The notes: generated by a model from the sequence alone, not told the origin. Shown: positions 13,850 through 64,000, numbered from the stretch's first letter. The stretch is DNA of 64,000 nt from Balneola sp. (GCA_003712055.1 RHLJ01000001.1:248001-312000), one strand, 5' to 3'. Made by a program: numbers and translations.

Positions 13850-13871
13850 AGTATTACGTCATTAACCTTCT

Positions 13872-15824: not shown

Positions 15825-15853
15825 TGTTTTTTATTTGGTTAATGTGCAATCCG

Positions 15854-15920: not shown

Positions 15921-15944
15921 GGCTCTGCTTGTCTTTTTTAAGAA

Positions 15945-16022
15945 GTCATCCTGAGCATACTTGCGAAGGATCTAGTCGGGTAAACCCACCCGTTTAGATT
16001 CTTCGCTCTCGCTCAGAATGAC
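15945..16022. repeat. Palindromic intergenic repeat, family A (copy 2, inverted orientation)
   Basis: The element starts gtcatcctgagcatac and ends gctcagaatgac, the reverse complement arrangement of the copy at 13708-13787. It lies between the TolC/HlyD operon terminator and the regulatory site of the next gene. Confidence 0.85.
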
Positions 16023-16029
16023 CTAAAAC

Positions 16030-16064
16030 AAAAAAAAAGCTGGAACGCTACCAACGTGCCAGCC
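16030..16064 (-). terminator. Terminator of the TolC/HlyD operon
   Basis: On the minus strand the stem GCTGGcACG / CGTtCCAGC is followed by a run of nine or more T. It lies about 20 bp after the stop of the HlyD-like gene. Confidence 0.85.
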
Positions 16065-16080
16065 CTGTGTAGTCGTTTTC

Positions 16081-17118: not shown

Positions 17119-18407
17119 TATTCTACCTCCGCATTTTTGACAATGAGGTTTTCAGTTTTATAGACCAGATACTTTTCGATGCTACTATCTACTAAAAGCA
17201 GATTGATCTTCAAGAGTAGCTGAGTCATTTGTTTGGTAAGACCAGCTGTTTCGATTTGGACAGCCAGGTATTCGTCCTGCAGCAAAGATGCATCGATGGC
17301 AGGAATGGTTGTATTCACACTCTTTTTCTGTAAGTCTAATACCCGAAGCTTTTCAGCGAGCTTCTTTTCCAAAGCTATGGTATTCAAACGCTGTTTTTGC
17401 TTATAGGTGTACTCCTGATAGAGCATCAGGATCTCTTTCTTCCTGTTCGAAAGTTCATATTCATAAACTTCATCCAGGTATTTTACTTCAGAGTTATATT
17501 TTTGTCGGATCTCCTTTTTTGAATTAGACAAGGGAACCGCAAGAGATACTCCTACTGATACATAATCTCTTCTATCATCACTAAAACTAACCTGATGGTT
17601 ATAGTATAAGTGTGCATTTAAACGAACATTATTTGACCAGAAATTTGGTTCCTCGATAAGTGCTTTATTCAGCTCCTTCTTTTTTGCCAGATTTGGACTG
17701 AATTCAAGATCAAACACCAATTCTTCAAGGTTAATATGAGGTAATTCCTCGAAGCCATAGATCCCTGAGGCTGTTACATAAGGTAGCTGTACCGAAAAGA
17801 TGGCTTCAAATGACTGAGTGGACGAAATGAGTACATCCTTTTGAAATTGAGCTTCCTCCATCCTGGCTTCTAAATCCATCAGTTCTCTGTTGGTGAAGTA
17901 CCCTTCTTCTCTTAAAGAACTAAACAATGGAGCCTTACTTCTGAGGAGACTAATCCTGGAATCATAATAATCGATTAATTTTTTCTCGAAGTAATAGGAA
18001 GCATAGGCGTACTGAAAGTAATAGCCTTCCCTTTTAGATTGATCGAGTGCATTTAGTTCTTCAAACTCTGCTTTTAGCAATGATTGATTTGCTTTCAGCC
18101 TTCGATCATAAAATCCTTCTGAAAGGATATTCCAGTTTACACCGGCTTTATAAAATGTTTGAAGATTTGAGAGCCCAAGGTCATCTTCAATAAAACCTTC
18201 TCCAAATTTGTGGTTTACTGATGATCTAAATTCAAGTCCAAAGTCTCTGTTATACAGACTTGCTTCACTGTAGTATTTATCAACCAGAGCACTGGAAATA
18301 TTTCCTGAGGAGAACCGGAGCAAATCGTTGATAAAGACATTGTATTCCTGTGCCTGTGCCTGCACGCTCAACAATGCTATGATGTAATATGTTTTGAGAG
18401 ATTTCAC
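17118..18407 (-). CDS. TolC-family outer-membrane efflux/export protein
   Basis: A 429-residue outer-membrane factor. It has a signal peptide ending at QAQAQ near residue 19 and long alpha-helical stretches typical of the TolC periplasmic tunnel, in two similar halves (SLLKAEFEELNALDQSKREGY... and KKELNKALIEEPNFW...VSVGVSLAVPLSNSKKEIRQKYNSEVKYLDEVYEYE). The VSVGVSLAVPLSNSKK strand-turn is characteristic of the second half. It is the first gene of an operon with the HlyD-like adaptor and carries a direct-repeat regulatory site upstream. Inferred role: outer-membrane channel for export, perhaps of the polysaccharide made by the GT2 synthase. Confidence 0.85.
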   Translation of the reverse strand: MKSLKTYYIIALLSVQAQAQEYNVFINDLLRFSSGNISSALVDKYYSEASLYNRDFGLEFRSSVNHKFGEGFIEDDLGLSNLQTFYKAGVNWNILSEGFYDRRLKANQSLLKAEFEELNALDQSKREGYYFQYAYASYYFEKKLIDYYDSRISLLRSKAPLFSSLREEGYFTNRELMDLEARMEEAQFQKDVLISSTQSFEAIFSVQLPYVTASGIYGFEELPHINLEELVFDLEFSPNLAKKKELNKALIEEPNFWSNNVRLNAHLYYNHQVSFSDDRRDYVSVGVSLAVPLSNSKKEIRQKYNSEVKYLDEVYEYELSNRKKEILMLYQEYTYKQKQRLNTIALEKKLAEKLRVLDLQKKSVNTTIPAIDASLLQDEYLAVQIETAGLTKQMTQLLLKINLLLVDSSIEKYLVYKTENLIVKNAEVE

Positions 18408-49681: not shown

Positions 49682-50065
49682 ATGAAAAAAGTATTTTTAC
49701 CTCTTCTCTTTTTGTTTTTTGGGCTCACAAATTGCATAAATAATGTAGAAGATAATACAGGAGAAGAACAATCAGGTATTAGTTATGCGCAGGATGTACA
49801 ACCAATCTTTAATGATAGATGTGTAGTTTGCCACGGAGCCAGCGGAGGAGTAAATCTTTCTACCTATGCAGCTTTAGATAACAGCGTAGGCAATTTATAT
49901 GGAACAGATGTACTTGTTCCGGGAAATGCTGAAGCAAGTGGCTTATATGATAAGCTACTACCTACCCCTCGACTTGGAACAAGAATGCCTCAAGGTGGAG
50001 CTTTGTCAGGAGATGAAATCGAAACTATCCGCGCCTGGATTAATGAAGGCGCCCTAAATAATTAA
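49682..50065 (+). CDS. Lipoprotein c-type cytochrome (planctomycete-type Cyt c)
   Basis: A 127-residue lipoprotein; lipobox LTNC at Cys19. The domain begins ISYAQDVQPIFNDRCVVCHGASGGVNL, with one CxxCH heme site (CVVCH) and the QPIF..RC context of planctomycete-type cytochrome c domains; the distal Met ligand is likely in GTRMPQGG. It is probably an electron carrier on the periplasmic side. It leads an operon with a YceI-like and a DUF5777 protein (gaps of 3 bp and overlap of 4 bp). Confidence 0.87.
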   Translation: MKKVFLPLLFLFFGLTNCINNVEDNTGEEQSGISYAQDVQPIFNDRCVVCHGASGGVNLSTYAALDNSVGNLYGTDVLVPGNAEASGLYDKLLPTPRLGTRMPQGGALSGDEIETIRAWINEGALNN

Positions 50066-50068
50066 GTC

Positions 50069-50614
50069 ATGAAAAGAGTCATAATTACGTTCTTAGCAGG
50101 AATTCTGATTTCGCTGAATATCAGTGCTCAATCTTATTATACAGAAGAAGGAAAAGCTGTTTTCAAATCCAAAGTGCCCCTTCATAATTTTACTGGTACT
50201 TCTGAAAATTTAGTCGGTATGATTAAGATGGAAGATATGTCTGTTGATTTTTACCTGGACTTGGAAACACTCGATACTGGAAATGGAAAGAGAGATAAGG
50301 ATATGAAACTTACCCTGGAAACAGATAAGCATCCTTTTGGTGAATTCTTTGGAAACATTACTACTGATTTTGATCCTGAGTCATCTGAGGAACAAGATGT
50401 AAGTGTAGTCGGGAATTTTACTATCCATGGAATTACCCAGGAGGTTGAAATTGATGGCTCTTTGACGGTCACAGATGATGGATTACTTGTAAAAGCGGCG
50501 TGGATCCTTAACCTTGAGGATTACGAAATCAAGCCTCCAAAACTACTCTTTGTTAAAGTAGATGAAAATCAGGAAATAGAAATTGAAGCATTACTTAAAC
50601 CAACTGACGAATGA
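50069..50614 (+). CDS. YceI-family periplasmic lipid-binding protein
   Basis: A 181-residue exported protein with signal peptide (MKRVIITFLAGILISLNISAQ). The lipocalin-like YceI fold shows as AVFKSKVPLHNFTGTSENLVGMIKM, FYLDLETLDTGNGKRDKDMK, FGEFFGNIT and NFTIHGITQEVEIDGSLTV. YceI proteins bind polyisoprenoids or similar amphiphiles in the periplasm and are often linked to respiratory or cytochrome functions. It is cotranscribed with the upstream cytochrome and overlaps the following DUF5777 gene by four bases (ATGA). Confidence 0.9.
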   Translation: MKRVIITFLAGILISLNISAQSYYTEEGKAVFKSKVPLHNFTGTSENLVGMIKMEDMSVDFYLDLETLDTGNGKRDKDMKLTLETDKHPFGEFFGNITTDFDPESSEEQDVSVVGNFTIHGITQEVEIDGSLTVTDDGLLVKAAWILNLEDYEIKPPKLLFVKVDENQEIEIEALLKPTDE

Positions 50615-51492
50615 TTGTAAAAAAAGTAAGTCTATCACTCCTACTAATACTATTCGTTGGCATTGAGTTAACGAACGCTCAAATGCAACGTACCCGAGCC
50701 GTTAAAGATGGGCCTGTAGATGAACTCTTTTTGATTGGGTCAGTAGCGGGCACAAGTACAGTAACTAATTTGGAGGCCAATAATCTCAATAGCCTGATCA
50801 TGCACAATTTCGGGCTTATAAGTAGTGGAATTGAAGACTTTTATGGACTAGACCAGGGCGCTGCTGTTCGTTTGGGAATAGATTACGGTATCACTGATAA
50901 ACTATCTGTGGGTATTGGAAGAACAAGTATTGAGGACAATGTTGACTTACGTTTTAAGTACACCCTGATGCGGCAGCTTAAGTCGGACAAAGTTCCTGTT
51001 GAAGTAGCTATCAAAGGAGATGTGGGAATTAACACTCAAAAGAACAGAATCTTTGATGATTTCACACTCCAGGAACGACTGAACTATTTCGCATCGGTTA
51101 TGGTAGCCCGACAATTCAATGATACATTCACCTTACAGATTGCTCCTATGGTTTCTCATTTTAATACCGTTGTAATTGAAACGGTAGGTCAGCCTCAACC
51201 AGAACATACTCATTATGCCCTGGGATTTGCGGGTAGGCTGAAGCTTGGGGTAAGAAACTCCCTAACTTTTGAGTATATCCCTGTTCTTGGAGATCGGACT
51301 GAAGGAACTGAAAATCATATGGCCATTGGCTATGAAATTGAAACCGGAGGGCACGTATTCCAAATGTTCCTAATGTCGGGACAATGGTTTACTGAGCAAC
51401 ACTTGATAGCCAGAAATACCACCGACTTTTTTGCTGGTGATTTTCGGCTTGGATTCAATGTGAACAGGGTGTTCAGTCTCGGAAAAAAATAA
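50611..51492 (+). CDS. DUF5777 family beta-barrel protein
   Basis: A 293-residue exported protein with signal peptide (MIVKKVSLSLLLILFVGIELTNAQ). The body is beta-rich with LFLIGSVAGTSTVTNLEANNLNSLIMHNFGLI, QGAAVRLGIDYGITDKLSVGIGR and later barrel-like strands, matching DUF5777, an uncharacterised Bacteroidota family. It likely forms an outer-membrane barrel. In other genomes I associate DUF5777 with YceI and cytochrome genes, consistent with the operon here, though function is unknown. Its stop codon touches the start of an inverted-repeat element. Confidence 0.85.
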   Translation: MIVKKVSLSLLLILFVGIELTNAQMQRTRAVKDGPVDELFLIGSVAGTSTVTNLEANNLNSLIMHNFGLISSGIEDFYGLDQGAAVRLGIDYGITDKLSVGIGRTSIEDNVDLRFKYTLMRQLKSDKVPVEVAIKGDVGINTQKNRIFDDFTLQERLNYFASVMVARQFNDTFTLQIAPMVSHFNTVVIETVGQPQPEHTHYALGFAGRLKLGVRNSLTFEYIPVLGDRTEGTENHMAIGYEIETGGHVFQMFLMSGQWFTEQHLIARNTTDFFAGDFRLGFNVNRVFSLGKK

Positions 51493-51698: not shown

Positions 51699-52040
51699 TT
51701 ATAGCAAGGATTTGATTTCCTGAGCTACTCCACGGTTATGTTGGAATGCTAGATCTTTGTGATTTACTAAATCAACAATAGTTCCAATCATACATAGCCC
51801 TGCGGTGAGAAAATAGAGAATGCCCATACCAATCTGATTAGTCAAAAATCGGTGTATACCAGCAAAACCTAATAAGCCAAGCAGACAAGTAATAAGTATC
51901 ATTTGAGGATCTTTCCGGCGAGCTCGATATGCGTTCACAAATTTTCTTATTTCATCTTCCTTCATGTCGCTAAAAAGCTTGTTAAGGTAAAGCCCCTCAT
52001 CTCCTTGAGCTTCAGGCATATAAAGCATTACTTCAGACAT
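51699..52040 (-). CDS. TM2-domain membrane protein
   Basis: A 113-residue inner-membrane protein. After a soluble N-terminus it carries the TM2 domain: MILITCLLGLLGFAGIHRFL, then IGMGILYFLTAGLCMIGTIVDLV, two helices with the G-x-H-R-F and DLV signatures. TM2 proteins are small membrane proteins of unclear function. It overlaps the DUF2752 gene by eight bases, and together they are the distal end of the Pel-like operon. Confidence 0.87.
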   Translation of the reverse strand: MSEVMLYMPEAQGDEGLYLNKLFSDMKEDEIRKFVNAYRARRKDPQMILITCLLGLLGFAGIHRFLTNQIGMGILYFLTAGLCMIGTIVDLVNHKDLAFQHNRGVAQEIKSLL

Positions 52041-52344
52041 AGTTTTTCTCCTTTAAATCCATTGTAGTTTGTTGATATAAGTTCTTCCAAATAAACAAAA
52101 TTCTGCAGATGAGCCCAACTACGACAAAAGGTCCTACAAGATGCGCTTCAAAAGATTTAATCAATTCACCTCTTGCAAAAAATGCTATCGAATGCCCTAA
52201 CCCTTCTCCCGGGCAAAAAGGCAATCCTATATGTTCTAGTAAACACCAGGTCGTGCCTTGTTCATAAGGGTTCATACTTGCCATCAATATCAAGCCAATA
52301 AGGAAAACCATCCATTCGCTATGTTTATTGACAAGCCTCATCAT
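52033..52344 (-). CDS. DUF2752 membrane protein
   Basis: A 103-residue protein with two or three hydrophobic helices. The conserved middle (LEHIGLPFCPGEGLGHSIAFFARGEL) has the CP-G-x-G motif of DUF2752. The family is often next to TM2 genes, as here. Its start overlaps the stop of the DUF2194-barrel gene by four bases (ATGA), so it is translationally coupled to the polysaccharide genes; whether it takes part in export is unknown. Confidence 0.85.
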   Translation of the reverse strand: MMRLVNKHSEWMVFLIGLILMASMNPYEQGTTWCLLEHIGLPFCPGEGLGHSIAFFARGELIKSFEAHLVGPFVVVGLICRILFIWKNLYQQTTMDLKEKNYV

Positions 52345-55300
52345 TGTGCTGATTTTTTATTTAAATAATAAGAGAGAGTAAAAAATAATCGATTTGAACG
52401 ATAAATTTTACTCGAAGATATTTCAGATCCGATCGTTAATTTCCAAAAACTATTAAACTTTTGATCGTATTGGATTCTTCCTGATCCAAAAACCCCTTCT
52501 TTAATTTCATGTTTCGCCATGAGTTCTAATTCCAGTCTTTTGAGAAAGTCGAATGTATCCGGATCTCGATATCGTAAATCAAAACCTAAACCTTGTTCAA
52601 AATATCGATCGGGGGTGAAGTACGGAACCCCGGTAACAAAGTTATCACTTGCATCAGCCCAGTATAATAAGGCAATAGGTCTGATTCTTATTTGGTTTAT
52701 AGACGACTGAAAATGAACTCTACCAGTAGTCTCATATTCGAACACTGAATTCGTATAGTAATAGGTAACAGCTGATAAAGAGGTAGCCCACTTTTGATCA
52801 GCTCCCCATGTATCTTCTCTATACCCTTGCAAGCCAAATCGGTTATAGTTATTTGCGATGGATGCCTCAGTTAACTCCGGAACAAAACTAAGTGTTAGTG
52901 AAGTAAAAGCATTGTTTTTGAATGTACTTATTGTGGAACTGGATTCGAATAACACGTTCTCTGAACCAAAAAATAATCCTCCTCCAATCTTGAATTCTCC
53001 GGATCCATCCATAATACTTTTAGAGAACTCATATCCGGGACCTACAAAGTTTAACGGAACAGTATTTAACACACTCTCAATGAATAAATCTTCAATCTTA
53101 ACGGTATGTGTTGAAGTGAGTCTATTACCTAATTGAGTTGATAGCCCGAACCTGCCAAAGTTATTGTCGAAATTATCACTTCTATACTCGCCAAATGCAG
53201 AAACTTTAGGGCCTTCATTCCATCTTAGCTCAGTCTTAAGTCTTTGATGTTCATGCTTATTAAAGAAAGCAGGATACTCATCATATAGCTGCTTCCTCTG
53301 TTCATAACTTAAAAATGAGATCTCATTACTCATGAGTGTATGTGCCTCTGTCGAACCATTTGGATCCTTCTCAAATACAGGATACATCACATCTTTGCCC
53401 TCATCTGTAAACCCAGCGTAATAGAGTTGAGTCCCAATTTTCACACGAAGACTGTCATCCTCAGGATTATCATCCAGGAGTAACATCGCCTTTTCAGTAT
53501 AGGCAGAGTAAAGCTTTTGTTGTAAAAGCAAATCCAATTTCTCCTCCTCATTGAAGTTGTCTGCTTTATCAGCCCAGTACATGGCCATTGGATAATTACC
53601 GAGGTCATAAGCATATATGAGTGCAAAATTTCTCGCAAATTGCTCCAACTGAGGATGTTTAGAACTAGGAAAGCTTTCCAGTAATTGTATGGTACTGTCG
53701 GAAGATTCAAAGTAAAAAGACCGCTGAAGAGTAAAAGCATACAAAGAATCACTTTCAGGGTATAAACCAATCAAGCGTTTAAGCTCTTGTTTTTGGATGG
53801 GCCAATTTTCCTGGCTTTCAATAAAGCGAACATACCTCATGGACAATACTTCATCATTGGGGTTAAGCTCCCTTTCTCGAAGCAGCCAGCGCAGATTAAA
53901 TGTCTGGTTATAGATACCTAATTCTTCAACAGCAAAATTTTTAACGTCAATAACCTCCTGAGATTCATACCTCAACCATAATCGCTCCAGAAAATTTTCA
54001 GCTTCATTATCTAATTCGTCCCAACCATAATATGTAAACAATCTATCAATATCGTTTTGAACCCAGGTAGAAGTCGCAAGCATCCTTCGTTCCAAAATCA
54101 GAATAGCTCTTCGTACATCGCTAAATTCAATACTTAATTTGATAAGTTCTTCCTGATTCTTAAAGTCTTCAGGGTTGTTTTGATAAGCCTTGATAGCATC
54201 GTTCAACCGTGTATCTACCCATGAAACTTCCTCACCTGGTGCGAGGGATATTAAGTTACCAAATTCATCAGTGAACTCGGTTTGATACCTCCTGCTCCTC
54301 ATAATTACATCATTAAGTTGGGCGGATATAAATTGAGGATCGTAGTACTGTTCAGGATCATAATTCGGTACAACCAAAGAATCCAAATAAGATTCAAACT
54401 GATATAAACTACCTTCCCAAAGTGGCGCCCTTTGATATTCAATAGATTGATTTTCCAAACTCTCCTCAAACTCAAAACTATTTTCTTCACTTACATAACT
54501 ATACCAGTAATCACCAGCTTCCAACTCAGATCTCTTTTGATATCCAGGGGTTGTAAATGGAATGAGAACCCTTTCTGATTGAGTAACATCATGAAACACG
54601 AAACTGTTATGCCAGTCTTCTGTAATCGCTCCTGCATCCTTTGCTGATAAGTATCTTAGTCCTTTATAACGCTCATTAGTCCAAAGCATTCGTTCCCTGA
54701 ATACATGATATAAGCCATACTTGTATACAGGATGGGATTTCCAACCTAAGCCTAAAGGGTTACGGCTTATAAACTCATCTTCTTCTCTTTGCTGCACCTG
54801 AAATACATCATCCGGGTGAATGAAATGAGTCCATATACCTGTAAGTAGCTGCATGCTTTGTTGCTGAAAGAGAGAATTTTCCTCCATTGAAAAGCCACTG
54901 GTTATTCTTGGATAATTGAAGATTCTATCATCAGGTGAATAGGGTTCATAATCAAATTCTCGTCCACCTCCTGATTCAATATCTCCTAAATAGAGAGATG
55001 ATAGGTACCTAATAGAAGGCATCCCTTTCATGAGTGCAGAAACACCAACCGAGTCAATGAAATTTGTAGGAGGCACATAGGAAATAGGAAGTGGCCCCAT
55101 CCTATCAATACGCCACCGCTTTCGAGCAGCATTAACAGAAGCGGCCATAAAATTCACATTATCCCAATCTATCAACCAAAGTGAAAAATGATTATAGCCA
55201 TGAAATGCTAACTCATGTCTTGTATTTAGTATATCTCTAGCCACCCGTATACTCGCATCTACTTCTCTACCATCTACAACTGTTTTACCTGAAGTCCACT

Positions 55301-56267
55301 CTTCAAAATCAAAAGGCGGGGTTACATTTGCGTTATAATTGAATGCGGTCATCGCAGAATAGGTCACATTGAAAGTATCTGCCAATGCCTTCATATCCGG
55401 CCACCAGATATTGAGTACAAAATTGGAATGTGTTACATCATATTCTGTATCTATAGGAGGAAGCTTTTCATTATATAATGGTGCTGGAAAATCATCTAAG
55501 AATATGGTACTTACATTTGCAACACTATATGGCACTCCATCCAGACTTCTCAGAATGGTGGAAAATATTAACCCGCGATAAAGCTTTTCCCAAAGTAACG
55601 TACTGTTAATCGTAACTACTTCACCAGCTCCAATTTCATTTAACAAAACCAGAGGATATTCAGGATTATTACCTGCTCCGGCCAAGACTTTTACCCTTTT
55701 AATAAACTGATCTTTTTCTAACCCCCTGTGAGGCAACTCTGCTCTAAAAAAGTACTTTTTCCCGGTATGCACTGGAAAAGCATCTTCAAAAAAATAAACT
55801 CCTTTAGCTAAAGAATCTGTTGAATAATCAGCAAAAGGAACTATTCCTTGAAGGAATGCGAACTTATCGTAAGCTAGTGGCCCAAGAAAAACAAGTTGAT
55901 TGCCCCGAGCTACATATCTGGTTAGATATTCAATTTCCTGGTCCGAAAGTTGGCTAAGCAATTCAGTAGTAACCACAATTGATCTGACTGAAGGCTTTAT
56001 ACTAAATCCCTCTGTTAATAAGCCTAAATCAATAGACTCGACAGGTAACTTCGCATACTGCATCGCAATAGTAACCTGATCGGAAATAACTCCGCTTAGA
56101 GAATCCTGCCTATGTTTTACCACTAGTACAAGAGGATCCTGTTGCAACAATTTAGAAGAATCAACTGGGAATTGTTCTTCAAACTGGCAGCTCACAAACA
56201 AAAAACAAACAATTCCTAAAAAAGCTATGAGGTTAGTCTTCCGAATCACTTCCCTCCTCTTCTTCAA
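52341..56267 (-). CDS. DUF2194 deacetylase-like, TPR and outer-membrane barrel fusion (PelA/PelB-like)
   Basis: A 1308-residue protein. The N-terminus is a signal with a lipobox-like FVSC (Cys27). Residues about 45-250 form a Rossmann-like domain, then a NodB/DUF2194-type deacetylase region with STIFLDDF (Asp258/259), HELAFHGYNH (His351/356/360) and HFIHPDD (His481/484), plausible metal and catalytic residues. From about 620 to 1000 the sequence is helical with TPR-like texture. The last ~290 residues are an outer-membrane barrel (GVPYFTPDRYFEQGLGFDLRY resembles the BcsC/PgaA ending). In Pel systems deacetylase (PelA) and TPR-porin (PelB) are separate proteins; here they are one chain. It overlaps both neighbours. 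Confidence 0.75.
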   Translation of the reverse strand: MKKRREVIRKTNLIAFLGIVCFLFVSCQFEEQFPVDSSKLLQQDPLVLVVKHRQDSLSGVISDQVTIAMQYAKLPVESIDLGLLTEGFSIKPSVRSIVVTTELLSQLSDQEIEYLTRYVARGNQLVFLGPLAYDKFAFLQGIVPFADYSTDSLAKGVYFFEDAFPVHTGKKYFFRAELPHRGLEKDQFIKRVKVLAGAGNNPEYPLVLLNEIGAGEVVTINSTLLWEKLYRGLIFSTILRSLDGVPYSVANVSTIFLDDFPAPLYNEKLPPIDTEYDVTHSNFVLNIWWPDMKALADTFNVTYSAMTAFNYNANVTPPFDFEEWTSGKTVVDGREVDASIRVARDILNTRHELAFHGYNHFSLWLIDWDNVNFMAASVNAARKRWRIDRMGPLPISYVPPTNFIDSVGVSALMKGMPSIRYLSSLYLGDIESGGGREFDYEPYSPDDRIFNYPRITSGFSMEENSLFQQQSMQLLTGIWTHFIHPDDVFQVQQREEDEFISRNPLGLGWKSHPVYKYGLYHVFRERMLWTNERYKGLRYLSAKDAGAITEDWHNSFVFHDVTQSERVLIPFTTPGYQKRSELEAGDYWYSYVSEENSFEFEESLENQSIEYQRAPLWEGSLYQFESYLDSLVVPNYDPEQYYDPQFISAQLNDVIMRSRRYQTEFTDEFGNLISLAPGEEVSWVDTRLNDAIKAYQNNPEDFKNQEELIKLSIEFSDVRRAILILERRMLATSTWVQNDIDRLFTYYGWDELDNEAENFLERLWLRYESQEVIDVKNFAVEELGIYNQTFNLRWLLRERELNPNDEVLSMRYVRFIESQENWPIQKQELKRLIGLYPESDSLYAFTLQRSFYFESSDSTIQLLESFPSSKHPQLEQFARNFALIYAYDLGNYPMAMYWADKADNFNEEEKLDLLLQQKLYSAYTEKAMLLLDDNPEDDSLRVKIGTQLYYAGFTDEGKDVMYPVFEKDPNGSTEAHTLMSNEISFLSYEQRKQLYDEYPAFFNKHEHQRLKTELRWNEGPKVSAFGEYRSDNFDNNFGRFGLSTQLGNRLTSTHTVKIEDLFIESVLNTVPLNFVGPGYEFSKSIMDGSGEFKIGGGLFFGSENVLFESSSTISTFKNNAFTSLTLSFVPELTEASIANNYNRFGLQGYREDTWGADQKWATSLSAVTYYYTNSVFEYETTGRVHFQSSINQIRIRPIALLYWADASDNFVTGVPYFTPDRYFEQGLGFDLRYRDPDTFDFLKRLELELMAKHEIKEGVFGSGRIQYDQKFNSFWKLTIGSEISSSKIYRSNRLFFTLSYYLNKKSAQ

Positions 56268-58299
56268 ATGGTTTTAGAGGCTCGTCTTCAGGGTAAATAT
56301 TTCTCAGAACAGCGCTTATCCTGGATTCCTTTTCACGGTTTATGATTTCATAAATAATTGCATCATCACTTTCATAATACACTTGGATATTCCTTCCTTC
56401 TAAATCTTCAAACACTTCAATCCACTGCTGCATATCACTCATTGTATTTTGAGGATTGAATAAAATACCTTGCTGTATTCCTGTATAAGGAGGTTTCTCT
56501 AGAAATAGAAAAATACTTGCTGGAGGTACATCTCTTTGATCACGCTGTGCTCTTGGTACCGTGAGGTACTGTTGATATAGGGAATCTATTACTCCATAGT
56601 TATCCAAAAAGAACTCATAGTTCATAAAGAAATGACGATTCTGGGCCAACCTCCGATCCAATTCCGGACTTACTGTTGCATAGCTATAGGGTACTCTTTC
56701 ATTAACTATACGGTAATAAGCTTCAAAAAAACCATTTGGGAGTGTTGCAGGTAATGCCCTGCTTATTAGAACACCTTGTTGTAGGACAATCAATGTAATT
56801 ATAAAGGCTATCGAGGATCCTACATTCATTACCCAGTATGCCTTTTGCTTCTCCTTTAATATAAACTTGTATAATCTTGTGATATTCAGAAATACTAAAC
56901 CGAAAAAGATGGAGATGAGTAACGCGTAGAATAAATTCAGTTGATCAGGATCAACCAATACGTAGGAAAAAGGGAAATAAGGAGTGTAGATATAACTAAC
57001 AAGCACGAACAAAATCAGAAAAACCAGTTCTTGTTTCTGTTCTATTGCCTTCAGCCTTAAAAGTACCAGGTTGACTAAAAAAAGAATCAATCCTCCCAAG
57101 AAGTAATACATGCTCAGCTCATCAATATACATTACCAGATTGGGGAAATAACTGAAGATAAGCGTGTCGAAAAGCTCTCGTTGGAAGAAATCCTGTAATG
57201 GAATCCTGTTGATTGTGCTTACTAGTATATATGGAAATAGTGCTAGCATGCTACTTGATATGAGATAAAGCAGAGACCAACCCAATCTTTTTTTCAATGA
57301 TTTTAAGGGCAGGGTAAGTAATCCTAGTAACAGAATCGGGATGAGCACCATAACAAAAACAAATACATTTGTTAAAGCGGTAGCAAAAATACCCATGCAG
57401 ATATAAAACCATATCATATTCTCCCCTTGCCTCATTAGTCGAAGGAAGAAAACTACGGTAGGAATTGCAAAACATAAGGCCAGTGAGATAGAATTGGCTT
57501 CCACTTCCAAATCAAGGATGATGGGTGACAGATACATGGGTACAAAAGCATAGATACTCATGCCTAACAGAGCAGCTACAGGGTTTTCCCTGCTTGTGAT
57601 CACATTAATCATCCAAAAAATAATAAGTGCCAGAAAAAAACTTGTTAGCGCGCCTAAAATATGCAATATCAGTTCTGGAGATACCTGAGTAAGTGTGCTA
57701 AATACATGTACCAGTACATGCATACCTTTTGGTTCCGGTATGACATCAAAATATTGCTGTAGTGAGAGAGCTTTAACCGAGCTGAGTTCAAAATACCATG
57801 TACGACTAAGGGGAGCTGAATTTTGAAGCGCTGGTATTATCCTTACTCCCGCTGCAAAAAATGCAATCAGAAAAGCAGCGAATTGAGGTGCTGATTCTTT
57901 TAGCGAGTAGCTGGGTAGCTTTGCTCGTCCTCGAAATCGATCCCAAATGGATATACTACTTTCAATTAACCGAACATGCTGAGCAATAATTTTGGTTTCA
58001 ATCGAGATGAAAACCTCTGAGGAAGTCATTCCTTTTTGTTTCTCTCGCACGAAATAAACCAATAAGGGAATAACTAACAGGAAAACGAGTAGGCTAATAA
58101 AATCATAAAGGTTTAGAGCTGTTAGAATCAGAACAACAACCAATATCAATCCACCAAGACCAATCCATGAATACATTAGCCGATCAATACCTGTTTTCGA
58201 CTCAACTTTGGGAAGAAAAAGCGGAGCCAGCACTCCAAAGAGTAAATAGAAACATACTATGATTCGAAAAACTGCAAATATGCCTTGAAAGAAATACAT
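56233..58299 (-). CDS. Large polytopic membrane protein of the Pel-like operon (GT-C-like?)
   Basis: A 688-residue protein with about 13-15 membrane helices in residues 5-500 and a soluble C-terminal part of about 170 residues. After the fourth helix there is a periplasmic-looking loop (LQNSAPLSRTWYFELSSVKALSLQQYF) in the manner of GT-C transferases. The C-terminal region is rich in aromatic and acidic residues (YSYATVSPELDRRLAQNR). I do not recognise a named family. It overlaps the downstream gene by 35 bp and the upstream one by one base. It takes the place of PelE or of an added enzyme; a glycan transferase or acyltransferase role is speculative. Confidence 0.7.
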   Translation of the reverse strand: MYFFQGIFAVFRIIVCFYLLFGVLAPLFLPKVESKTGIDRLMYSWIGLGGLILVVVLILTALNLYDFISLLVFLLVIPLLVYFVREKQKGMTSSEVFISIETKIIAQHVRLIESSISIWDRFRGRAKLPSYSLKESAPQFAAFLIAFFAAGVRIIPALQNSAPLSRTWYFELSSVKALSLQQYFDVIPEPKGMHVLVHVFSTLTQVSPELILHILGALTSFFLALIIFWMINVITSRENPVAALLGMSIYAFVPMYLSPIILDLEVEANSISLALCFAIPTVVFFLRLMRQGENMIWFYICMGIFATALTNVFVFVMVLIPILLLGLLTLPLKSLKKRLGWSLLYLISSSMLALFPYILVSTINRIPLQDFFQRELFDTLIFSYFPNLVMYIDELSMYYFLGGLILFLVNLVLLRLKAIEQKQELVFLILFVLVSYIYTPYFPFSYVLVDPDQLNLFYALLISIFFGLVFLNITRLYKFILKEKQKAYWVMNVGSSIAFIITLIVLQQGVLISRALPATLPNGFFEAYYRIVNERVPYSYATVSPELDRRLAQNRHFFMNYEFFLDNYGVIDSLYQQYLTVPRAQRDQRDVPPASIFLFLEKPPYTGIQQGILFNPQNTMSDMQQWIEVFEDLEGRNIQVYYESDDAIIYEIINREKESRISAVLRNIYPEDEPLKPFEEEEGSDSED

Positions 58300-59168
58300 C
58301 AGTTCATACCTGGGTTTAACATAGCTCTACTGGAATACACTGGAAGTGTACTTAGCTCAATATTGCTAATGAAATATGGCATACCTAAGGTATCAAGGCG
58401 CGATTGTACTTTATTTATTGCTGCTGCTTCAATTGCAAAGTCCAGAACCAAAAAAGGTAAATCGAACCTTGTTGAATAAGATCGCAATAGACTTAGTCTC
58501 TCATGATAGCTGATATCATCTTTCACAAAGTACTCTCCTTGTTCAAAATTATACCCTGATGCAATGTCTTCCATCAGTACTCCATCAATATACTCTGATG
58601 TGTCTTCCAACAGAAAAAGCCCTGCATTCTGGACCAATAGTAAATCTGGATTTCGTTTTCTAATCTCACGAATCATTTCCACCATATAAGAAGCCAGACT
58701 TGAACGACTTGTGTAAGGAGATACAGAGTCGATAGTGTCCATAAAAATCCCATCTACTCCTTTTTTTGTCAGTTCGGGTAGAACCTGATCAATTAGAATC
58801 GATCTTGTAAGAGAGTCTTCGAGGTTTAAAAAAGAACTTCCCCAGTTTTTGTTTTTCCCTAAAAACCCACCCTCCATCAGTTTTGGATAATACCAACGAT
58901 TCGTATCTACTTCACCAAGGGAAATATAGGCAAGCACTTTTGTCCCTTTAGATTTCATCTGTGCTATTTCTGCTTTGGAATAAAAATCCGACTCGATTAT
59001 AACCATCGAATAACCTTCAACCTGCTCAGGAGTAATTTTAGCGTAAGAAACTCCAAAGGCAGAAAAAGGACTCCTATTTTCACTATGGGTTACTTCTATC
59101 GAAGATTTGCAGGAAACTAAGGTGACTAAAGAAATCAACATAAGCTTAAACACTAAAATCCAGCTCAT
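58299..59168 (-). CDS. GH114 endo-alpha-1,4-polygalactosaminidase-like lipoprotein
   Basis: A 289-residue lipoprotein (lipobox LVSC, Cys20) consisting of one TIM-barrel GH114/TM1410-like domain: FGVSYAKITPEQVEGYSMVIIES, TKVLAYISLGEVDTNRWYY, KGVDGIFMDTIDS, LLLVQNAG and LMEDI. GH114 forms the N-terminal domain of PelA and cleaves GalN-rich Pel polymer; the acidic residues in YISLGEVD and FMDTID fit the active site. Being a lipoprotein it acts in the periplasm or at the outer membrane. It sits between the HD-GYP-like gene and the large membrane protein gene with small gaps. Confidence 0.87.
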   Translation of the reverse strand: MSWILVFKLMLISLVTLVSCKSSIEVTHSENRSPFSAFGVSYAKITPEQVEGYSMVIIESDFYSKAEIAQMKSKGTKVLAYISLGEVDTNRWYYPKLMEGGFLGKNKNWGSSFLNLEDSLTRSILIDQVLPELTKKGVDGIFMDTIDSVSPYTSRSSLASYMVEMIREIRKRNPDLLLVQNAGLFLLEDTSEYIDGVLMEDIASGYNFEQGEYFVKDDISYHERLSLLRSYSTRFDLPFLVLDFAIEAAAINKVQSRLDTLGMPYFISNIELSTLPVYSSRAMLNPGMN

Positions 59169-59172
59169 AGGA

Positions 59173-60747
59173 TTAGTCTACTCCTAGTTGGATACACATC
59201 TCCCATCCCATCATTTTAACCAACTCAAGTACAGTTGGCACAATAACCATATCAAAGTGTAAATCGGCCCTTTCGATAATATTTTGGGATAGTAGATCAA
59301 TCCACTCTTCAGGCGTTTTAGAAGTATCGTCTTTATTCGATTCAATGAACTCAACGATGTATTCAAATACAGCGATAATTTTACCTGTCCATGATATTTC
59401 TGAAGCTTCCAATCCCTGAGGGCTTCCTTCACCATTTACCCATTCCTGATGAGTGAGAACTCCTTGTTTAACATCATCATGAATTGGAAGCTGATCTATT
59501 AATTTATAGCCCGTTAATGGATGACTAAGTTCTGAACCTATAGAAGCTTCGGATTCAACACTCAGAGAACCTACATATCCAATATCATGCAGCTTGGCAG
59601 TGAGCTTAAGAATTTCTGTTTCTGAATCATCCAGGCCAAAAATCATAGCAAAACGTTCTGCAAAAGCTATAACTCTAGGAGTATGATGCTTTGTTGTTTC
59701 CCTTTGTAACTCAATTGAGCGAAGCATCTGGTAATAAGTATCCAACAAATGATTAGAGAACTCAGCGTTCTCATCTCGATAGTTGAATAATTGAGCTAAT
59801 TGCTTAGCTACTGATGTAAATGATTCTTCATTTTTTTGGGGCTCTTTTAATAAAATTAACCCGGAAGAATCATCCTCTTCGAAATGAATTGAAGTAATAG
59901 CTCCTAATTTATCTAAACTAATACTTGTGATTTTACCGGTCTTTTCTCCCTTTACCGCTAGCTCATTTTCACTCAGTAAGGTACCGATGATATCATCATC
60001 CAGATTCTCTGAATAAATTACATCTATGGTACCCCTTGAAGTTTCTACAACTGCTCCGCCACTGCTTTCACAATAGCTTATGAGATATCTTAATAATAAT
60101 CGAGATAAAGCCTCTGTATTCAGGGCACCGCTTCCTAACTCGGAGATGATTTCTCCCATCTTATTTTTATAGTCATCCTTCTGGCCTTCTTCCTCTTTCT
60201 CAATATTGCTCAACCAAATTGACAGTAACCGACCCACAATTGAAATTCGAGGTACAATAACCTCCGGGCATCTGGTATTTGGACCAATTATATACAAGCC
60301 CCATACATTGCTATCTTCATCATACAGTGGGATGTGCTCACAATTACCTACTGAGTTTGAAGAAATTCCATGTTCGTTAAGTTCAGGATACCACTTTTTC
60401 TTTTGCTGTAAATTCTGTACCTGTTGCTCAAAACTGCTTACTGCTTCTTTCTCGTTTTCATTAAGATCGCTCTTTGATTCTTTACCTATCAGGTTTTCCA
60501 GATTGACAAATCTTTTGAACAGGAATAATTCATCACCTTTCTTCCGGTATACAATATGGACCGGAGCTTTGTAGAGAATATCCATCCATCGAACAATATC
60601 TCTAAAGGATGGTGGCTTAGCCCTGGACATATGCTCTGCTGAATGAGACCAAAACTTTAATTCATCTTCAACACTAAACTCCTGAAGTGAAAATGCCTTT
60701 CCAATTCTACTGCCTACCAGGTTTAAATATGACTTAACATCTTTCAT
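59173..60747 (-). CDS. GAF-like plus degenerate HD-GYP protein in the PelD position
   Basis: A 524-residue soluble protein with no membrane helix. Residues about 55-185 and 200-325 look like GAF-type sensor folds (EHIPLYDEDSNVWGLYIIGP). From 350 on it matches an HD-GYP domain: HHTPRVIAFAERFAMIFGL, LHDIG at 386-390 (His387-Asp388, but Tyr replaces the usual Lys after IG), HPLTG (His409), and HQEWVNGEGSP at 433-443 where HHExxDGxGYP is usual. The final DxxDAL is not evident (VFEYIVEF). It may bind or hydrolyse c-di-GMP; several ligands differ. PelD, the c-di-GMP receptor of Pel systems, has a GAF plus GGDEF-like domain at this place. Confidence 0.8.
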   Translation of the reverse strand: MKDVKSYLNLVGSRIGKAFSLQEFSVEDELKFWSHSAEHMSRAKPPSFRDIVRWMDILYKAPVHIVYRKKGDELFLFKRFVNLENLIGKESKSDLNENEKEAVSSFEQQVQNLQQKKKWYPELNEHGISSNSVGNCEHIPLYDEDSNVWGLYIIGPNTRCPEVIVPRISIVGRLLSIWLSNIEKEEEGQKDDYKNKMGEIISELGSGALNTEALSRLLLRYLISYCESSGGAVVETSRGTIDVIYSENLDDDIIGTLLSENELAVKGEKTGKITSISLDKLGAITSIHFEEDDSSGLILLKEPQKNEESFTSVAKQLAQLFNYRDENAEFSNHLLDTYYQMLRSIELQRETTKHHTPRVIAFAERFAMIFGLDDSETEILKLTAKLHDIGYVGSLSVESEASIGSELSHPLTGYKLIDQLPIHDDVKQGVLTHQEWVNGEGSPQGLEASEISWTGKIIAVFEYIVEFIESNKDDTSKTPEEWIDLLSQNIIERADLHFDMVIVPTVLELVKMMGWEMCIQLGVD

Positions 60748-60755
60748 TGATACCC

Positions 60756-62381
60756 TTAATATGCTGAGTAATAATAATAATCCAAATGCTTAAAAAACCG
60801 TCTCGCTAGTAACAAAGTAATCAACGCGAAAGTTACCGCCCCTGCCAACATTCCAACCGTTGCGTATTCCATACCATACCATCTGCTACAAACAAAGCCA
60901 ACTACAAAATTTATCAAAAGAGCTATAAGGATTGGGTACACTACAAATGACGCCCTATTTAGCGTAAAGAAAAACAGAGAATTGAGTAATCCATATACCA
61001 GGAAAACGTACCCTATACTCCCCATCCAGAATACTTTAAAGGTAATTGGGTTAGCGAAGAAATCCCTGATTTCAGGTATCTGTTGTTCAAATACTCTGAG
61101 ACTGAGAATTCCATAGTAGGTTGCAAATACCGATGCACTGCATATTATGAATAGCAGTAACAGTTGACGCAGGTAAAAACTTCGGAAGTACTTATTGAAT
61201 ATCCTGAAATTATTAAGTGAAATATTTTTTTGAGCGGGTATTAAGTGCTTTGAAAAAGCATGAATGCTGTATTCTAGGGTGGCTATTGTAATAACGAAGC
61301 TTATCAGAGCCCAGTCCATCCCTAATTCATATGGAGTATTGAACCAAATTAGGTAAGGCGGTGGCGGTGGCCCCGCTGACCAGGCCAGAAGCCTATCCAT
61401 AAATAGAAACAAGAAATAACAAAATCCATATACAAAGTAACGGTAGTTGTTATAGTAGCTTACTTCCTGATTAGGTAATGTTTGTTTTAATAATTCCTGT
61501 CGAAGCTCTCTGATTTTAATGCGATAGTATAAAAATGAATACCCACCCATTATGAGGGTAGCAAAAATTATCCCAATCCACTGTGTTACATAAACTCCTA
61601 ATGAAGTTATCTCCATTAACCCAATTACTAAAAAGGTTGAAACCGTTATTGAAAACAAAATCATAAACCTCAATTCTGTTGCAAAAAGTACCGCTGCAGT
61701 CAATAGTAGCATAGAAATCAGAACTAGATAGACTACTGACAGAAGAAGCATGCTTGCCGGGTAAAATGGAAAAGCAGCATTCAGTAATATCAGTATAAGC
61801 GCGCATAGCAAAACAAACGGAACTCCAAATCTTAACACCTTTACAATTGCTTGGGCTGCTAAATAATAGTTTTCCTCTCCTTTATATTTCGAAACAAGTC
61901 GCCCGATTACCTGGATAAAACCGCCGGTAATTATAAATGAAGCAATTGTACCAAAAGCAATCACAGTTGCCTGAGCTTCATTAAACCTAAGCCACGCCCA
62001 TAATGCATATTCAAAGATCAGAATTGCAGCAATCTGGATCAGCATAGGCATCGATAAAACTAAACCTGCTGAATAATGTTTACCAAAAAGCCCAATTGAC
62101 TCAAAAAAACCTACTCTATGCTTTTTCTTTTTGAATTCTTTACCTGAATTAGCAATCTGGTTTTGTATTTGTTCGTACACATACTCTGCCAGCTCAAAAA
62201 CACTTGGATATCCATAATCCGTTTGGGCATCTATATCCCGAATCCCAAGAGACTCAATTGTAGCAGCAACCGCCCAACTACTCATAGGAATGTCTACTAT
62301 TTCACGAACCTGAGAAACAAGTAACTGTTTACTCTCTAAAAAGGGAGCCGGCCCAACTTCTATGTTTACTTGGTCACCCAA
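60756..62381 (-). CDS. pelG: Pel exopolysaccharide membrane transporter PelG
   Basis: A 541-residue inner-membrane protein of the PelG family (MATE/MOP-like polysaccharide transporter) with about 12 helices from residue 107 on. Telling segments are GFFESIGLFGKHYSAGLVLSMPMLIQIAAI and the PYLIWFNTPYELGMDWALISFVITIATLEYS stretch near residue 345. With PelF it is the core of the Pel synthase. It carries an extra N-terminal region of about 90 soluble residues (SWAVAATIESLGIRDIDAQ) before the first helix, absent from the ~456-residue PelG of Pseudomonas as I know it. It overlaps pelF by eight bases. Confidence 0.88.
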   Translation of the reverse strand: MGDQVNIEVGPAPFLESKQLLVSQVREIVDIPMSSWAVAATIESLGIRDIDAQTDYGYPSVFELAEYVYEQIQNQIANSGKEFKKKKHRVGFFESIGLFGKHYSAGLVLSMPMLIQIAAILIFEYALWAWLRFNEAQATVIAFGTIASFIITGGFIQVIGRLVSKYKGEENYYLAAQAIVKVLRFGVPFVLLCALILILLNAAFPFYPASMLLLSVVYLVLISMLLLTAAVLFATELRFMILFSITVSTFLVIGLMEITSLGVYVTQWIGIIFATLIMGGYSFLYYRIKIRELRQELLKQTLPNQEVSYYNNYRYFVYGFCYFLFLFMDRLLAWSAGPPPPPYLIWFNTPYELGMDWALISFVITIATLEYSIHAFSKHLIPAQKNISLNNFRIFNKYFRSFYLRQLLLLFIICSASVFATYYGILSLRVFEQQIPEIRDFFANPITFKVFWMGSIGYVFLVYGLLNSLFFFTLNRASFVVYPILIALLINFVVGFVCSRWYGMEYATVGMLAGAVTFALITLLLARRFFKHLDYYYYSAY

Positions 62382-63954
62382 CTAATTCTGGCTCCTCGGA
62401 TAACGTATTCAGAAAATCAATCACTGACTTTGTTTTTATTGATTCCTTTAAAGGATTTCGTGGCAATACCATAAGTCTTTTGTAGCTCTCCAGGTATGAA
62501 TCGACACTTTTCTTAGTCGTGAAATTAAGTAATACTTTTTCCCTGGATTTTTTTCCTAGCTCCAGCCTGAGATTTGTGTCTTTTAGCAATTTAATAACTC
62601 CATCAGCGATTGCTCTTGGATCCCTAGGTTTGCACAGAACTCCACAACCTTCCAGTGCATCTTTAATTCCCCCAACATCAGTAGCTACAACAGGGCGCTG
62701 ACAACTCATCGATTCAATTACTGTATAAGGGAATCCTTCTGAAATAGAAGTAAGAATTGAAATATCCCCCTCATTAAATACCATACTTGGTTTATCATGA
62801 AAACCTCCGAACCGGAAATGGTCTCCAACATTAAGCTCTTTAATTAGCTCCTCGCATTTAGAAACATAGTCTTTGTCAACATCTAAACTGCCGTAAACAA
62901 TAAACTGAACATCTGTGATTTCCTTCCTTACCAGATCACAGGTCTTAATCATCGTTTCTATATCCTTTAACGGGAAAATATGAGCTACGGCTACTACCGT
63001 TGGCTTATCAGCAGTGTGGGCGGGCTTTAGCGTTGGATTAAAGATATTTGTATCAACCCCATTGTAAATCGGTAATATTTTCTTTTCATCAGCTTCAAAT
63101 TTTTCTTCCCATTTCTGATTAGCAGTAGTAACAGGTGAAATCTGATCTGCGGTATAGTAAACCGCTCTTGTAACCAGCGTTGCCAAATTGAGAAGTAACT
63201 GTTTTGAAAAGAAAGGCATATCGGCTCGTCCAAGGTTAATCAGCCTTTCGCGAATATAAACCCCATGATCGGTGACCATACTCGGCGTGCCATATTCGTA
63301 TTTAGCTACAATTGATGCGAGTGCAGGGAAACCTGCTATTGTTGCATGACAAACATCTATTTCTTTAGGTATACTTACCGCCAGAGGCATCAAAAAATGA
63401 TATAACCACCTCATCCCAAAAGTGACGTCAAAAACCATGGGTTCTTTTGGATCATCTTTGATGTGCTTGAATCTTTCCATCAGATGATCTTTAAAGTTTA
63501 ACCATAGAGAAGATTCTCTCATGGTTTGTTTGTAGTCATATACCTGGAAGTATTTCCACATCCCATAGATAATTTCACTTATCTCGTCTGGATCTCGAAA
63601 CGGATCAAATAGAGTCTCTACAAAATCATAGAATATAGGAGCGAATTGTTCATTGATTACCGCTTTTGTAGTTCTGGACTTCCTCATTATCTGATAAGAA
63701 AAAAGTTCGTCCTTATCGTAGTACTGAACCGGTTCTTCTACCCCCCAAAGCGGAATATGGATAATCTTTTTAACATTCTCAGTAAGCTTATACCTGCTTT
63801 CAACAAAGGGTTGGCCAGTAATGGTATAAATATATAAATCTACGGTATCAACCAACTCAGAGCAAAGAATATGAGCCCAGGTTGATACACCACCCCCACT
63901 GTATGGGTAAGAACCCTCTGTCTCGAACAATACAATGGGTTTCTCATTGCTCAT
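62374..63954 (-). CDS. pelF: Pel exopolysaccharide glycosyltransferase PelF
   Basis: A 526-residue GT4-type transferase of the PelF family, which uses UDP-GalNAc or UDP-GlcNAc to build the Pel backbone in the cytosol. The N-terminus IVLFETEGSYPYSGGGVSTWAHIL is characteristic, GHASFPTLAS-like AGFPALASI follows, and the C-terminal GT-B half has VAVAHIFPLKDIETMI and the EX7E motif EGFPYTVIE with VVATDVGGIKDAL. It precedes pelG with an eight-base overlap, the order seen in other Pel loci. Its ATG overlaps the stop of an upstream gene that runs off the window. Confidence 0.93.
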   Translation of the reverse strand: MSNEKPIVLFETEGSYPYSGGGVSTWAHILCSELVDTVDLYIYTITGQPFVESRYKLTENVKKIIHIPLWGVEEPVQYYDKDELFSYQIMRKSRTTKAVINEQFAPIFYDFVETLFDPFRDPDEISEIIYGMWKYFQVYDYKQTMRESSLWLNFKDHLMERFKHIKDDPKEPMVFDVTFGMRWLYHFLMPLAVSIPKEIDVCHATIAGFPALASIVAKYEYGTPSMVTDHGVYIRERLINLGRADMPFFSKQLLLNLATLVTRAVYYTADQISPVTTANQKWEEKFEADEKKILPIYNGVDTNIFNPTLKPAHTADKPTVVAVAHIFPLKDIETMIKTCDLVRKEITDVQFIVYGSLDVDKDYVSKCEELIKELNVGDHFRFGGFHDKPSMVFNEGDISILTSISEGFPYTVIESMSCQRPVVATDVGGIKDALEGCGVLCKPRDPRAIADGVIKLLKDTNLRLELGKKSREKVLLNFTTKKSVDSYLESYKRLMVLPRNPLKESIKTKSVIDFLNTLSEEPELVG

Positions 63955-64000
63955 CCGGAAACCTCATTTAGAACCACATCCGAAAGCAATGTTTCGTACT
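63951..64000 (-). CDS. 3' end of an upstream gene of the Pel-like operon (partial)
   Basis: On the minus strand one frame is open from the window edge to a TGA that overlaps the pelF ATG as ATGA. It encodes the last 15 residues YETLLSDVVLNEVSG. Such a four-base overlap is typical of an operon. The product is unknown. Confidence 0.45.
   Translation of the reverse strand, partial: YETLLSDVVLNEVSG

What the first reader, a model, noticed from the sequence alone, without database searches (positions are those of the whole stretch)
51699..64000. Divergent Pel-like operon in a Balneolota-type genome
PelF and PelG are clear, and GH114, deacetylase and TPR-barrel parts match PelA and PelB functions. 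However, the genes are rearranged, PelC is not seen, the PelD place is held by a GAF-like/HD-GYP-like protein, and a large unidentified membrane protein and DUF2752/TM2 proteins are coupled to the operon. All eight genes overlap or are separated by at most 8 bp.
Basis: partly seen in the sequence, partly recalled or inferred. Interest (0 to 1): 0.85.

Follow-up and report, generated by a model that had tools for sequence, protein, structure and literature searches.

The report
Pel-type polysaccharide exporter without c-di-GMP
A bacterium of the Balneolaceae carries a rebuilt version of the Pel biofilm-polysaccharide machine, in which the deacetylase and the outer-membrane pore are one protein, an oligosaccharyltransferase-like membrane protein is always present, and the usual c-di-GMP switch is missing; the same five-gene core recurs in many marine and freshwater Bacteroidota.

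Summary
The operon has eleven genes, not eight: it runs upstream past 64000 through a second PelF-like glycosyltransferase, a receiver protein and a receiver-histidine kinase, and no pelC, pelD or pelE turns up there. PelF is certain and PelG is a diverged relative. The GH114 protein is a PelA-type hydrolase. The 1308-aa protein is a fusion: a Gram-positive-type Pel deacetylase (DUF2194, i.e. B. cereus PelADA, CBM114+CE26, all catalytic residues kept) joined to TPRs and a 16-strand BcsC/PgaA/PelB-type export barrel. The 'unidentified' membrane protein (here MemX) has a predicted GT-C fold (STT3/PglB, PMT, ArnT; Z up to 22). PelF-PelG-hydrolase-MemX-fusion is an invariant ordered core in all 73 named Balneolota and Bacteroidota loci whose contigs reach far enough. 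The genome (99.4% complete) shows no GGDEF or EAL protein; nor do eleven other Balneolaceae or six other Bacteroidota with the operon. So this looks like a c-di-GMP-independent Pel-type exopolysaccharide system in which a fusion and a GT-C-fold protein stand where PelA/PelB and PelC/D/E normally do. The polymer, and what MemX does, are inferred. I found no paper describing this system.

The parts
63951..64000 (-). 3' end of the second PelF-type glycosyltransferase gene (whole gene 63951-65135 in extended coordinates; DUF3492 + GT4; E-x7-E kept)
62374..63954 (-). pelF: cytoplasmic GT4 polymerase
   Evidence: NCBIfam NF038011 142.5 bits, cut-off 100; E406/E414 conserved
60756..62381 (-). pelG: diverged inner-membrane polymer exporter with about 100 extra N-terminal residues
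   Evidence: PF16933 29.4 bits, cut-off 29
59173..60747 (-). HD-GYP-like regulator (HD domain at residues 345-489; HD, H409, H433 kept, GYP signature altered)
58299..59168 (-). pelA hydrolase-type lipoprotein (GH114/GH166-like), catalytic E200 = P. aeruginosa PelA E218
56233..58299 (-). MemX: GT-C-fold membrane protein, constant core component
   Evidence: model pLDDT 77.9; Foldseek and VIA hits to STT3/AglB/PMT/ArnT
56332..57921 (-). GT-C module of MemX (residues about 127-656)
   Evidence: model range
52341..56267 (-). PelADA-PelB fusion, 1308 aa, N-terminal lipobox (FLFVSC)
54594..56129 (-). DUF2194 part of the fusion (CBM114 + CE26 deacetylase; D258 D259 H356 H360 R454 H484 D487)
53214..54209 (-). 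TPR region of the fusion (residues about 687-1018)
52365..53207 (-). 16-strand C-terminal beta-barrel of the fusion (residues about 1021-1301)
   Evidence: BcsC Z 24.2, PgaA Z 23.7, PelB Z 22.3
52033..52344 (-). DUF2752 small membrane protein (Balneolaceae only)
51699..52040 (-). TM2-domain small membrane protein (Balneolaceae only)

Best explanation
This is a synthase-dependent exopolysaccharide secretion operon of Pel type that probably makes a partly deacetylated alpha-1,4-GalNAc polymer. PelF (helped or modified by a second PelF-type GT in Balneolota) polymerises UDP-sugar in the cytoplasm; PelG passes the chain across the inner membrane next to MemX, a GT-C-fold protein that holds or modifies the emerging chain; a PelA-type hydrolase lipoprotein trims it; and a single outer-membrane protein binds it (CBM114), deacetylates it (CE26) and exports it through its own TPR-barrel. 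Joining the deacetylase to the TPR-barrel plausibly replaces the PelA-PelB contact and the PelC ring. Control is not by c-di-GMP but, in Balneolota, probably by the encoded receiver/kinase proteins and the GAF/HD-type protein. Shown here: gene content, order and conservation, catalytic residues, predicted folds, no GGDEF or EAL match. Inferred: the polymer, the chain's path, MemX's job and the regulation.
For: PelF over its curated cut-off. Hydrolase profile hits P. aeruginosa PelA best (E 1.5e-29) and its invariant E200 aligns with PelA E218 (PMC9894940). DUF2194 matches B. cereus PelADA 9ZAU (E 3.3e-63) with D262, D263, HxxxH, R458, H488, D491 all matched (PMC13254593). TPR + 16-strand barrel: the three best-fitting solved families are polysaccharide exporters BcsC, PgaA and PelB (Z 22-24), other barrels at most 15.6. 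MemX GT-C fold, Z 16-22 to OST, PMT and ArnT. Invariant core order. Strong PelF hits (22 genomes) all fall in MemX genomes. GGDEF and EAL not found in G000 (controls rang). A DUF4832 gene, a known neighbour of Gram-positive pel operons, flanks 21 Flavobacterium-type loci (PMC7112168).
Against: No chemistry: another hexosamine polymer cannot be excluded. PelG is marginal by profile (5 of 18 family members reach E 1e-3) and a profile comparison with one Fusobacteriota PelG found nothing. PelC/D/E could be present elsewhere in unrecognisable form. The fusion model has pTM 0.44, so domain arrangement is unsure. The MemX fold is a prediction; sequence profiles found no solved relative.
Confidence: 0.74

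Rival explanations
1. The operon is homologous to pel but makes and exports a different polysaccharide, for example a heteropolymer built by the two PelF-type transferases and decorated in the periplasm by MemX using a polyprenyl-linked sugar.
For: Two PelF-type GTs in Balneolota; a GT-C-fold protein, a class that often uses lipid-linked donors; D160 just after the first GT-C helix in 61 of 61 Flavobacteriia/Roseivirga sequences.
Against: Both processing enzymes belong to groups whose studied members act on alpha-1,4-GalNAc (PMC13254593, PMC9894940). Most Bacteroidota loci have only one PelF. Balneolota have N/H/S at position 160. No donor-making GT2 is in the operon.
Confidence: 0.3
2. MemX is not an enzyme but a scaffold with a GT-C fold that takes the place of PelD/PelE (and bridges PelG to the short, outer-membrane-anchored exporter).
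For: No acidic residue of the first extracytoplasmic loop is conserved over the whole family; position 160 is N/H/S in all 35 Balneolota-type sequences yet the gene is retained. PelD/PelE homologues are absent from the operon. The GPI transamidase subunit PIG-U, a GT-C-fold non-catalytic protein (own knowledge), is among the fold hits.
Against: D450 and D452 are conserved in 95 and 90 of 96 and could be catalytic. The equivalence of position 160 with the GT-C catalytic Asp was not shown by a residue-level structural alignment.
Confidence: 0.45
3. The HD-domain protein is a c-di-GMP (or 3',3'-cGAMP) phosphodiesterase that controls the operon as PelD does.
For: Its profile finds HD-GYP phosphodiesterases in the PDB, best a 3'3'-cGAMP-specific phosphodiesterase (E 7e-24); metal-site H/D residues mostly kept.
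Against: No GGDEF or EAL match in the genome; HDxGK lysine and GYP tyrosine lost; H434 is Q in this genus; the gene is absent from the Flavobacteriia loci.
Confidence: 0.12
4. The locus is a decayed or secondary pel copy, with the real one elsewhere.
Against: Single PelF, PelG and DUF2194 in the genome; all frames open; catalytic residues invariant; no canonical genes upstream.
Confidence: 0.03

Closest known systems
Pseudomonas aeruginosa pelABCDEFG
   Same: PelF, PelG-type exporter, PelA-type hydrolase with the same catalytic Glu, deacetylase, TPR + 16-strand barrel exporter
   Different: No PelC, PelD or PelE recognised; deacetylase is CE26 not CE21 and is fused to the barrel instead of the hydrolase; GT-C-fold protein added; no GGDEF protein found in the genome
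Bacillus cereus pelDEADAFG (Gram-positive Pel)
   Same: PelADA (CBM114+CE26) with all catalytic residues; separate hydrolase; DUF4832 neighbours in related loci
   Different: B. cereus PelADA has an N-terminal membrane helix and no barrel; it has PelD (c-di-GMP) and PelE; no GT-C-fold protein is described
Fusobacteriota pel cluster (Cetobacterium somerae plasmid, L164)
   Same: Hydrolase, DUF2194, PelF, PelG in one cluster in a two-membrane bacterium
   Different: DUF2194 is unfused (609 aa), a GAF protein is present, and no protein resembling MemX in size and position is encoded
BcsC and PgaA exporters
   Same: TPR + 16-strand barrel, no PelC-like lipoprotein needed (PMC12141448)
   Different: Here the barrel carries its own deacetylase domain
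STT3/PglB/AglB, PMT, ArnT (GT-C)
   Same: Predicted fold of MemX residues 127-656 (Z 16-22)
   Different: No detectable sequence similarity; no conserved EL1 acid over the family; extra N-terminal helices; found next to pelFG, not with glycan-donor genes

Membership tests
Pel biosynthesis system (Gram-negative, P. aeruginosa type) | PelF glycosyltransferase | tested here: met
   NF038011 142.5 bits, cut-off 100
Pel biosynthesis system (Gram-negative, P. aeruginosa type) | PelG exporter | tested here: inconclusive
   PF16933 29.4 vs 29 bits; 5 of 18 members hit; single-sequence profile comparison negative
Pel biosynthesis system (Gram-negative, P. aeruginosa type) | PelA hydrolase with catalytic Glu | tested here: met
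   5tcb E 1.5e-29; E200 aligns with E218
Pel biosynthesis system (Gram-negative, P. aeruginosa type) | PelB TPR + 16-strand barrel | tested here: met
   Predicted structure; PelB 9h80 Z 22.3, with BcsC and PgaA about equal
Pel biosynthesis system (Gram-negative, P. aeruginosa type) | PelC lipoprotein in the operon | tested here: not met
   No candidate among eleven genes; five-gene core in Bacteroidota has no further gene
Pel biosynthesis system (Gram-negative, P. aeruginosa type) | PelD c-di-GMP receptor and c-di-GMP control | tested here: not met
   No PelD in the operon; no GGDEF or EAL match in genome. PF16963 search negative but its control was uninformative
Pel biosynthesis system (Gram-negative, P. 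aeruginosa type) | Polymer is alpha-1,4 GalNAc/GalN | not testable with these tools
   Needs matrix chemistry or lectin staining
CE26/CBM114 (PelADA) | Sequence homology and DD / HxxxH / R / H...D catalytic set | tested here: met
   9ZAU E 3.3e-63; D258 D259 H356 H360 R454 H484 D487 matched and invariant
CE26/CBM114 (PelADA) | Deacetylase activity on alpha-1,4-GalNAc | not testable with these tools
   Needs purified protein
GT-C glycosyltransferases | GT-C fold | tested here: met
   Predicted model only; Z 22.3 AglB, 21 STT3, 18 PMT4, 16 ArnT, well above unrelated rows
GT-C glycosyltransferases | Conserved catalytic acid in the first extracytoplasmic loop | tested here: inconclusive
   Position 160 D in 61/61 Flavobacteriia/Roseivirga, N/H/S in 35 Balneolota-type sequences; residue-level equivalence not shown
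HD-GYP phosphodiesterases | HD...HDxGK...HHExxDGxGYP signature | tested here: not met
   HD kept, K, D and Y replaced, H434Q in this genus; fold-family match remains

The most novel reading that the evidence does not exclude
MemX is an active GT-C enzyme that acts on the Pel chain as it leaves PelG, either adding a lipid-linked sugar or transferring the whole chain to a lipid or protein anchor; this would be a lipid-linked step inside a synthase-dependent exopolysaccharide pathway, with the catalytic acid kept in Flavobacteriia and relocated or lost in Balneolota.
Probability: 0.3. Interest if true: 0.88.

Novelty: new variant of a known kind. Interest (0 to 1): 0.72.

Why it matters
Pel is a model biofilm polysaccharide, studied in Proteobacteria and Gram-positives, where PelD, PelE and (in Gram-negatives) PelC are required. 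This operon gives a widely conserved natural design without recognisable versions of them. It makes directly testable whether PelC mainly serves the PelA-PelB contact (here a single chain), how Pel-type synthesis can run without c-di-GMP, and what a GT-C-fold protein does beside PelG. It also predicts that many marine and freshwater Flavobacteriaceae and Balneolota make Pel-like matrix, which I found reported nowhere in the literature searched.

Tried and rejected
Canonical pel genes upstream: read about 17 kb beyond the window, none. PelD_GGDEF (PF16963): no match, but no control rang, so not counted as proof of absence. Profile search of MemX against PDB sequences: nothing relevant, so the GT-C call rests on predicted structure alone; one family member touches DUF6541, no literature. 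HD protein versus the Cetobacterium GAF protein: no relation detected. PelG family versus Cetobacterium PelG by hhalign: no signal, probably because one side was a single sequence. MemX against plasmids: no match, so its presence outside Bacteroidota/Balneolota was not tested further. Literature searches for pel in Bacteroidota or Flavobacteria found nothing describing such an operon; DUF2194 appears in two papers only. One protein comparison failed internally.

Full report
What is there. The eight minus-strand genes at 51699-63954 are present as described, tightly packed. So it is an eleven-gene operon: REC-kinase, REC protein, GT4b, pelF, pelG, HD protein, hydrolase, MemX, deacetylase-exporter fusion, DUF2752, TM2. 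The genome holds one PelF over cut-off, one PelG and one DUF2194.

Identity of the parts. PelF passes the NCBIfam equivalog (142.5 bits, cut-off 100) and keeps the EGSYP/GGVSTW start and E406-x7-E414. GT4b carries the PelF-type DUF3492 domain and its own E-x7-E and also hits the PelF model, below that model's cut-off in this genome. PelG is marginal (29.4 vs 29 bits; only 5 of 18 family members, one of them the Cetobacterium PelG, reach E 1e-3) but sits in the invariant position after pelF. The hydrolase profile finds P. aeruginosa PelA best (5tcb, E 1.5e-29) ahead of TM1410 and GH114 enzymes, and the invariant E200 aligns with PelA E218, the catalytic base (PMC9894940); the N-terminus has a lipobox (sequence).

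The fusion. Residues 31-563 match PDB 9ZAU (E 3.3e-63). That entry is B. cereus ATCC 10987 PelADA, founding member of CBM114 and CE26, shown to deacetylate alpha-1,4-GalNAc and to be required for Pel (PMC13254593). Using the alignment, PelADA D262, D263, H350, H354, R458, H488 and D491 correspond to D258, D259, H356, H360, R454, H484 and D487, all invariant in the family. P. aeruginosa PelA belongs to a different family, CE21 (PMC12022489). The rest of the protein was modelled with 32 sequences (residues 239-1308, mean pLDDT 85.6, pTM 0.44): a beta-rich part, TPRs at about 687-1018, and 16 beta strands at about 1021-1301. The best solved matches are BcsC (Z 24.2), PgaA (23.7) and PelB from the PelBC complex (22.3); other barrels reach 15.6 at most; the CE part matches CE4-type deacetylases at Z 17. 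Thus a Gram-positive-type Pel deacetylase is joined to a Gram-negative polysaccharide exporter. Most homologues start with a lipobox.

MemX. The 688-aa protein has no Pfam or NCBIfam family and no sequence relative in the PDB. Its model (mean pLDDT 77.9, pTM 0.73) is a GT-C fold: all 12 Foldseek matches with E <= 1e-3 are oligosaccharyltransferases or C-mannosyltransferase, followed by ArnT, AftA and PMT; VIA Z is 22.3 to AglB, about 21 to yeast STT3, 18 to Pmt4, 16 to ArnT, and the list of GT-C proteins ends before a drop to 5 for unrelated chains. Across 96 homologues D450 and D452 are conserved (95 and 90), while no acidic residue at the start of the first extracytoplasmic loop is kept throughout: position 160 is D in 61 of 61 Flavobacteriia/Roseivirga sequences and N, H or S in 35 Balneolota-type ones, a clean split on the tree (100/99 support). 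That position lies just after the first helix of the GT-C module, where GT-C enzymes carry the catalytic acid (own knowledge); I could not show residue-level equivalence. So an enzyme in Flavobacteriia and a scaffold or altered enzyme in Balneolota are both open.

Conservation. In 296 sampled genomes of the phylum MemX occurs in 23, and all 23 lie in this operon. In a 247-genome sample full-length DUF2194 occurs only in MemX genomes. In a 292-genome sample, strong PelF hits (E <= 1e-80) occur in 22 genomes, all MemX genomes. A scan of named genomes gave 80 loci in Balneolaceae, Flavobacteriaceae and Roseivirga; 73 hold PelF-PelG-hydrolase-MemX-fusion in that order on one strand, and the other seven are cut by contig ends. 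The two receiver proteins, GT4b, HD protein, DUF2752 and TM2 belong to Balneolota and near relatives. One distant genome (G243) has instead a RsbW-like kinase, a GAF-SpoIIE phosphatase, a GAF-HD protein and a STAS-like protein (STAS by eye). In Cetobacterium (Fusobacteriota) a pel cluster has unfused DUF2194, a GAF protein and no MemX-like gene, and F. nucleatum co-regulates DUF2194 with pelF and pelG (PMC9848294), so fusion and MemX look specific to Bacteroidota and Balneolota. A DUF4832-type gene, a known neighbour of Gram-positive pel operons (PMC7112168), flanks 21 of the Flavobacterium-type loci (one member tested by Pfam, the others by the shared NPERGFY motif).

Regulation. GGDEF (PF00990) is not found in G000, in eleven other Balneolaceae, in two f26 genomes or in four Flavobacteriia/Roseivirga genomes with the operon, while controls rang in 8 of 14; two genomes with the operon (G011, G243) do have GGDEF. 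EAL is not found in the 18 genomes searched. The HD protein is related to HD-GYP and cGAMP phosphodiesterases but has lost the HDxGK lysine and the GYP tyrosine, and H434 is Q in this genus. Control by the encoded receiver/kinase proteins is the simplest reading; it is inference.

Mechanism. PelF polymerises; PelG exports beside MemX; the hydrolase trims; the fusion binds, deacetylates and secretes. In P. aeruginosa PelA binds PelB TPR residues 332-436, PelC is essential, and BcsC and PgaA manage without such a lipoprotein (PMC12141448; PMC12022489). A covalent deacetylase-TPR-barrel may therefore make PelC unnecessary. The TPR part here (about 330 residues) is much shorter than that of PelB, so MemX, the hydrolase, or both may bridge to the inner membrane. 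These steps are inferred.

Verdict. Membership in the P. aeruginosa-type Pel system fails on PelC and PelD; 'works like Pel' stays the best reading (0.74). Novelty: new variant of a known kind.

Noticed in passing
window 49682-51492: A c-type-cytochrome-like small lipoprotein, a YceI-like protein and a 293-aa outer-membrane-like protein lie convergent to the operon; the last two are kept at that place in most Balneolaceae loci (L027-L042).
   Followed up: no
L003:5399-5893 (extended window 67399-67893): A 164-aa exported protein of no Pfam family, divergent from the operon, recurs upstream in many Balneolaceae loci.
   Followed up: partly
L096:2882-3910, L098:2887-3846 and similar: Maribacter, Salegentibacter and relatives carry an extra GH114 gene beside the core operon, either upstream or divergent.
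   Followed up: partly
L091:13980-15626 and 20 further Flavobacterium-type loci: A DUF4874-DUF4832 protein, in L091 with a type IX secretion tail, lies convergent to the operon; DUF4832 also accompanies Gram-positive pel operons.
   Followed up: yes
L139: A contig labelled as a Bifidobacterium breve MAG carries the Flavobacterium-type operon and falls among Flavobacterium in the tree: probably a mis-binned contig.
   Followed up: partly
L163 (NZ_CP084075.1): A 2.1-Mb Fusobacterium vincentii 'plasmid' in the plasmid collection looks like a chromosome.
   Followed up: no
control genomes: Thermotoga maritima rings for DUF2194, PelG and PelF, and its TM1410 is a relative of the Pel hydrolase: a Pel-type cluster there is likely.
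   Followed up: no
L047 (G243), 7010-7435, 13848-17784: A distant relative replaces the receiver proteins by a RsbW/SpoIIE/STAS-type partner-switch set inside the operon.
   Followed up: partly
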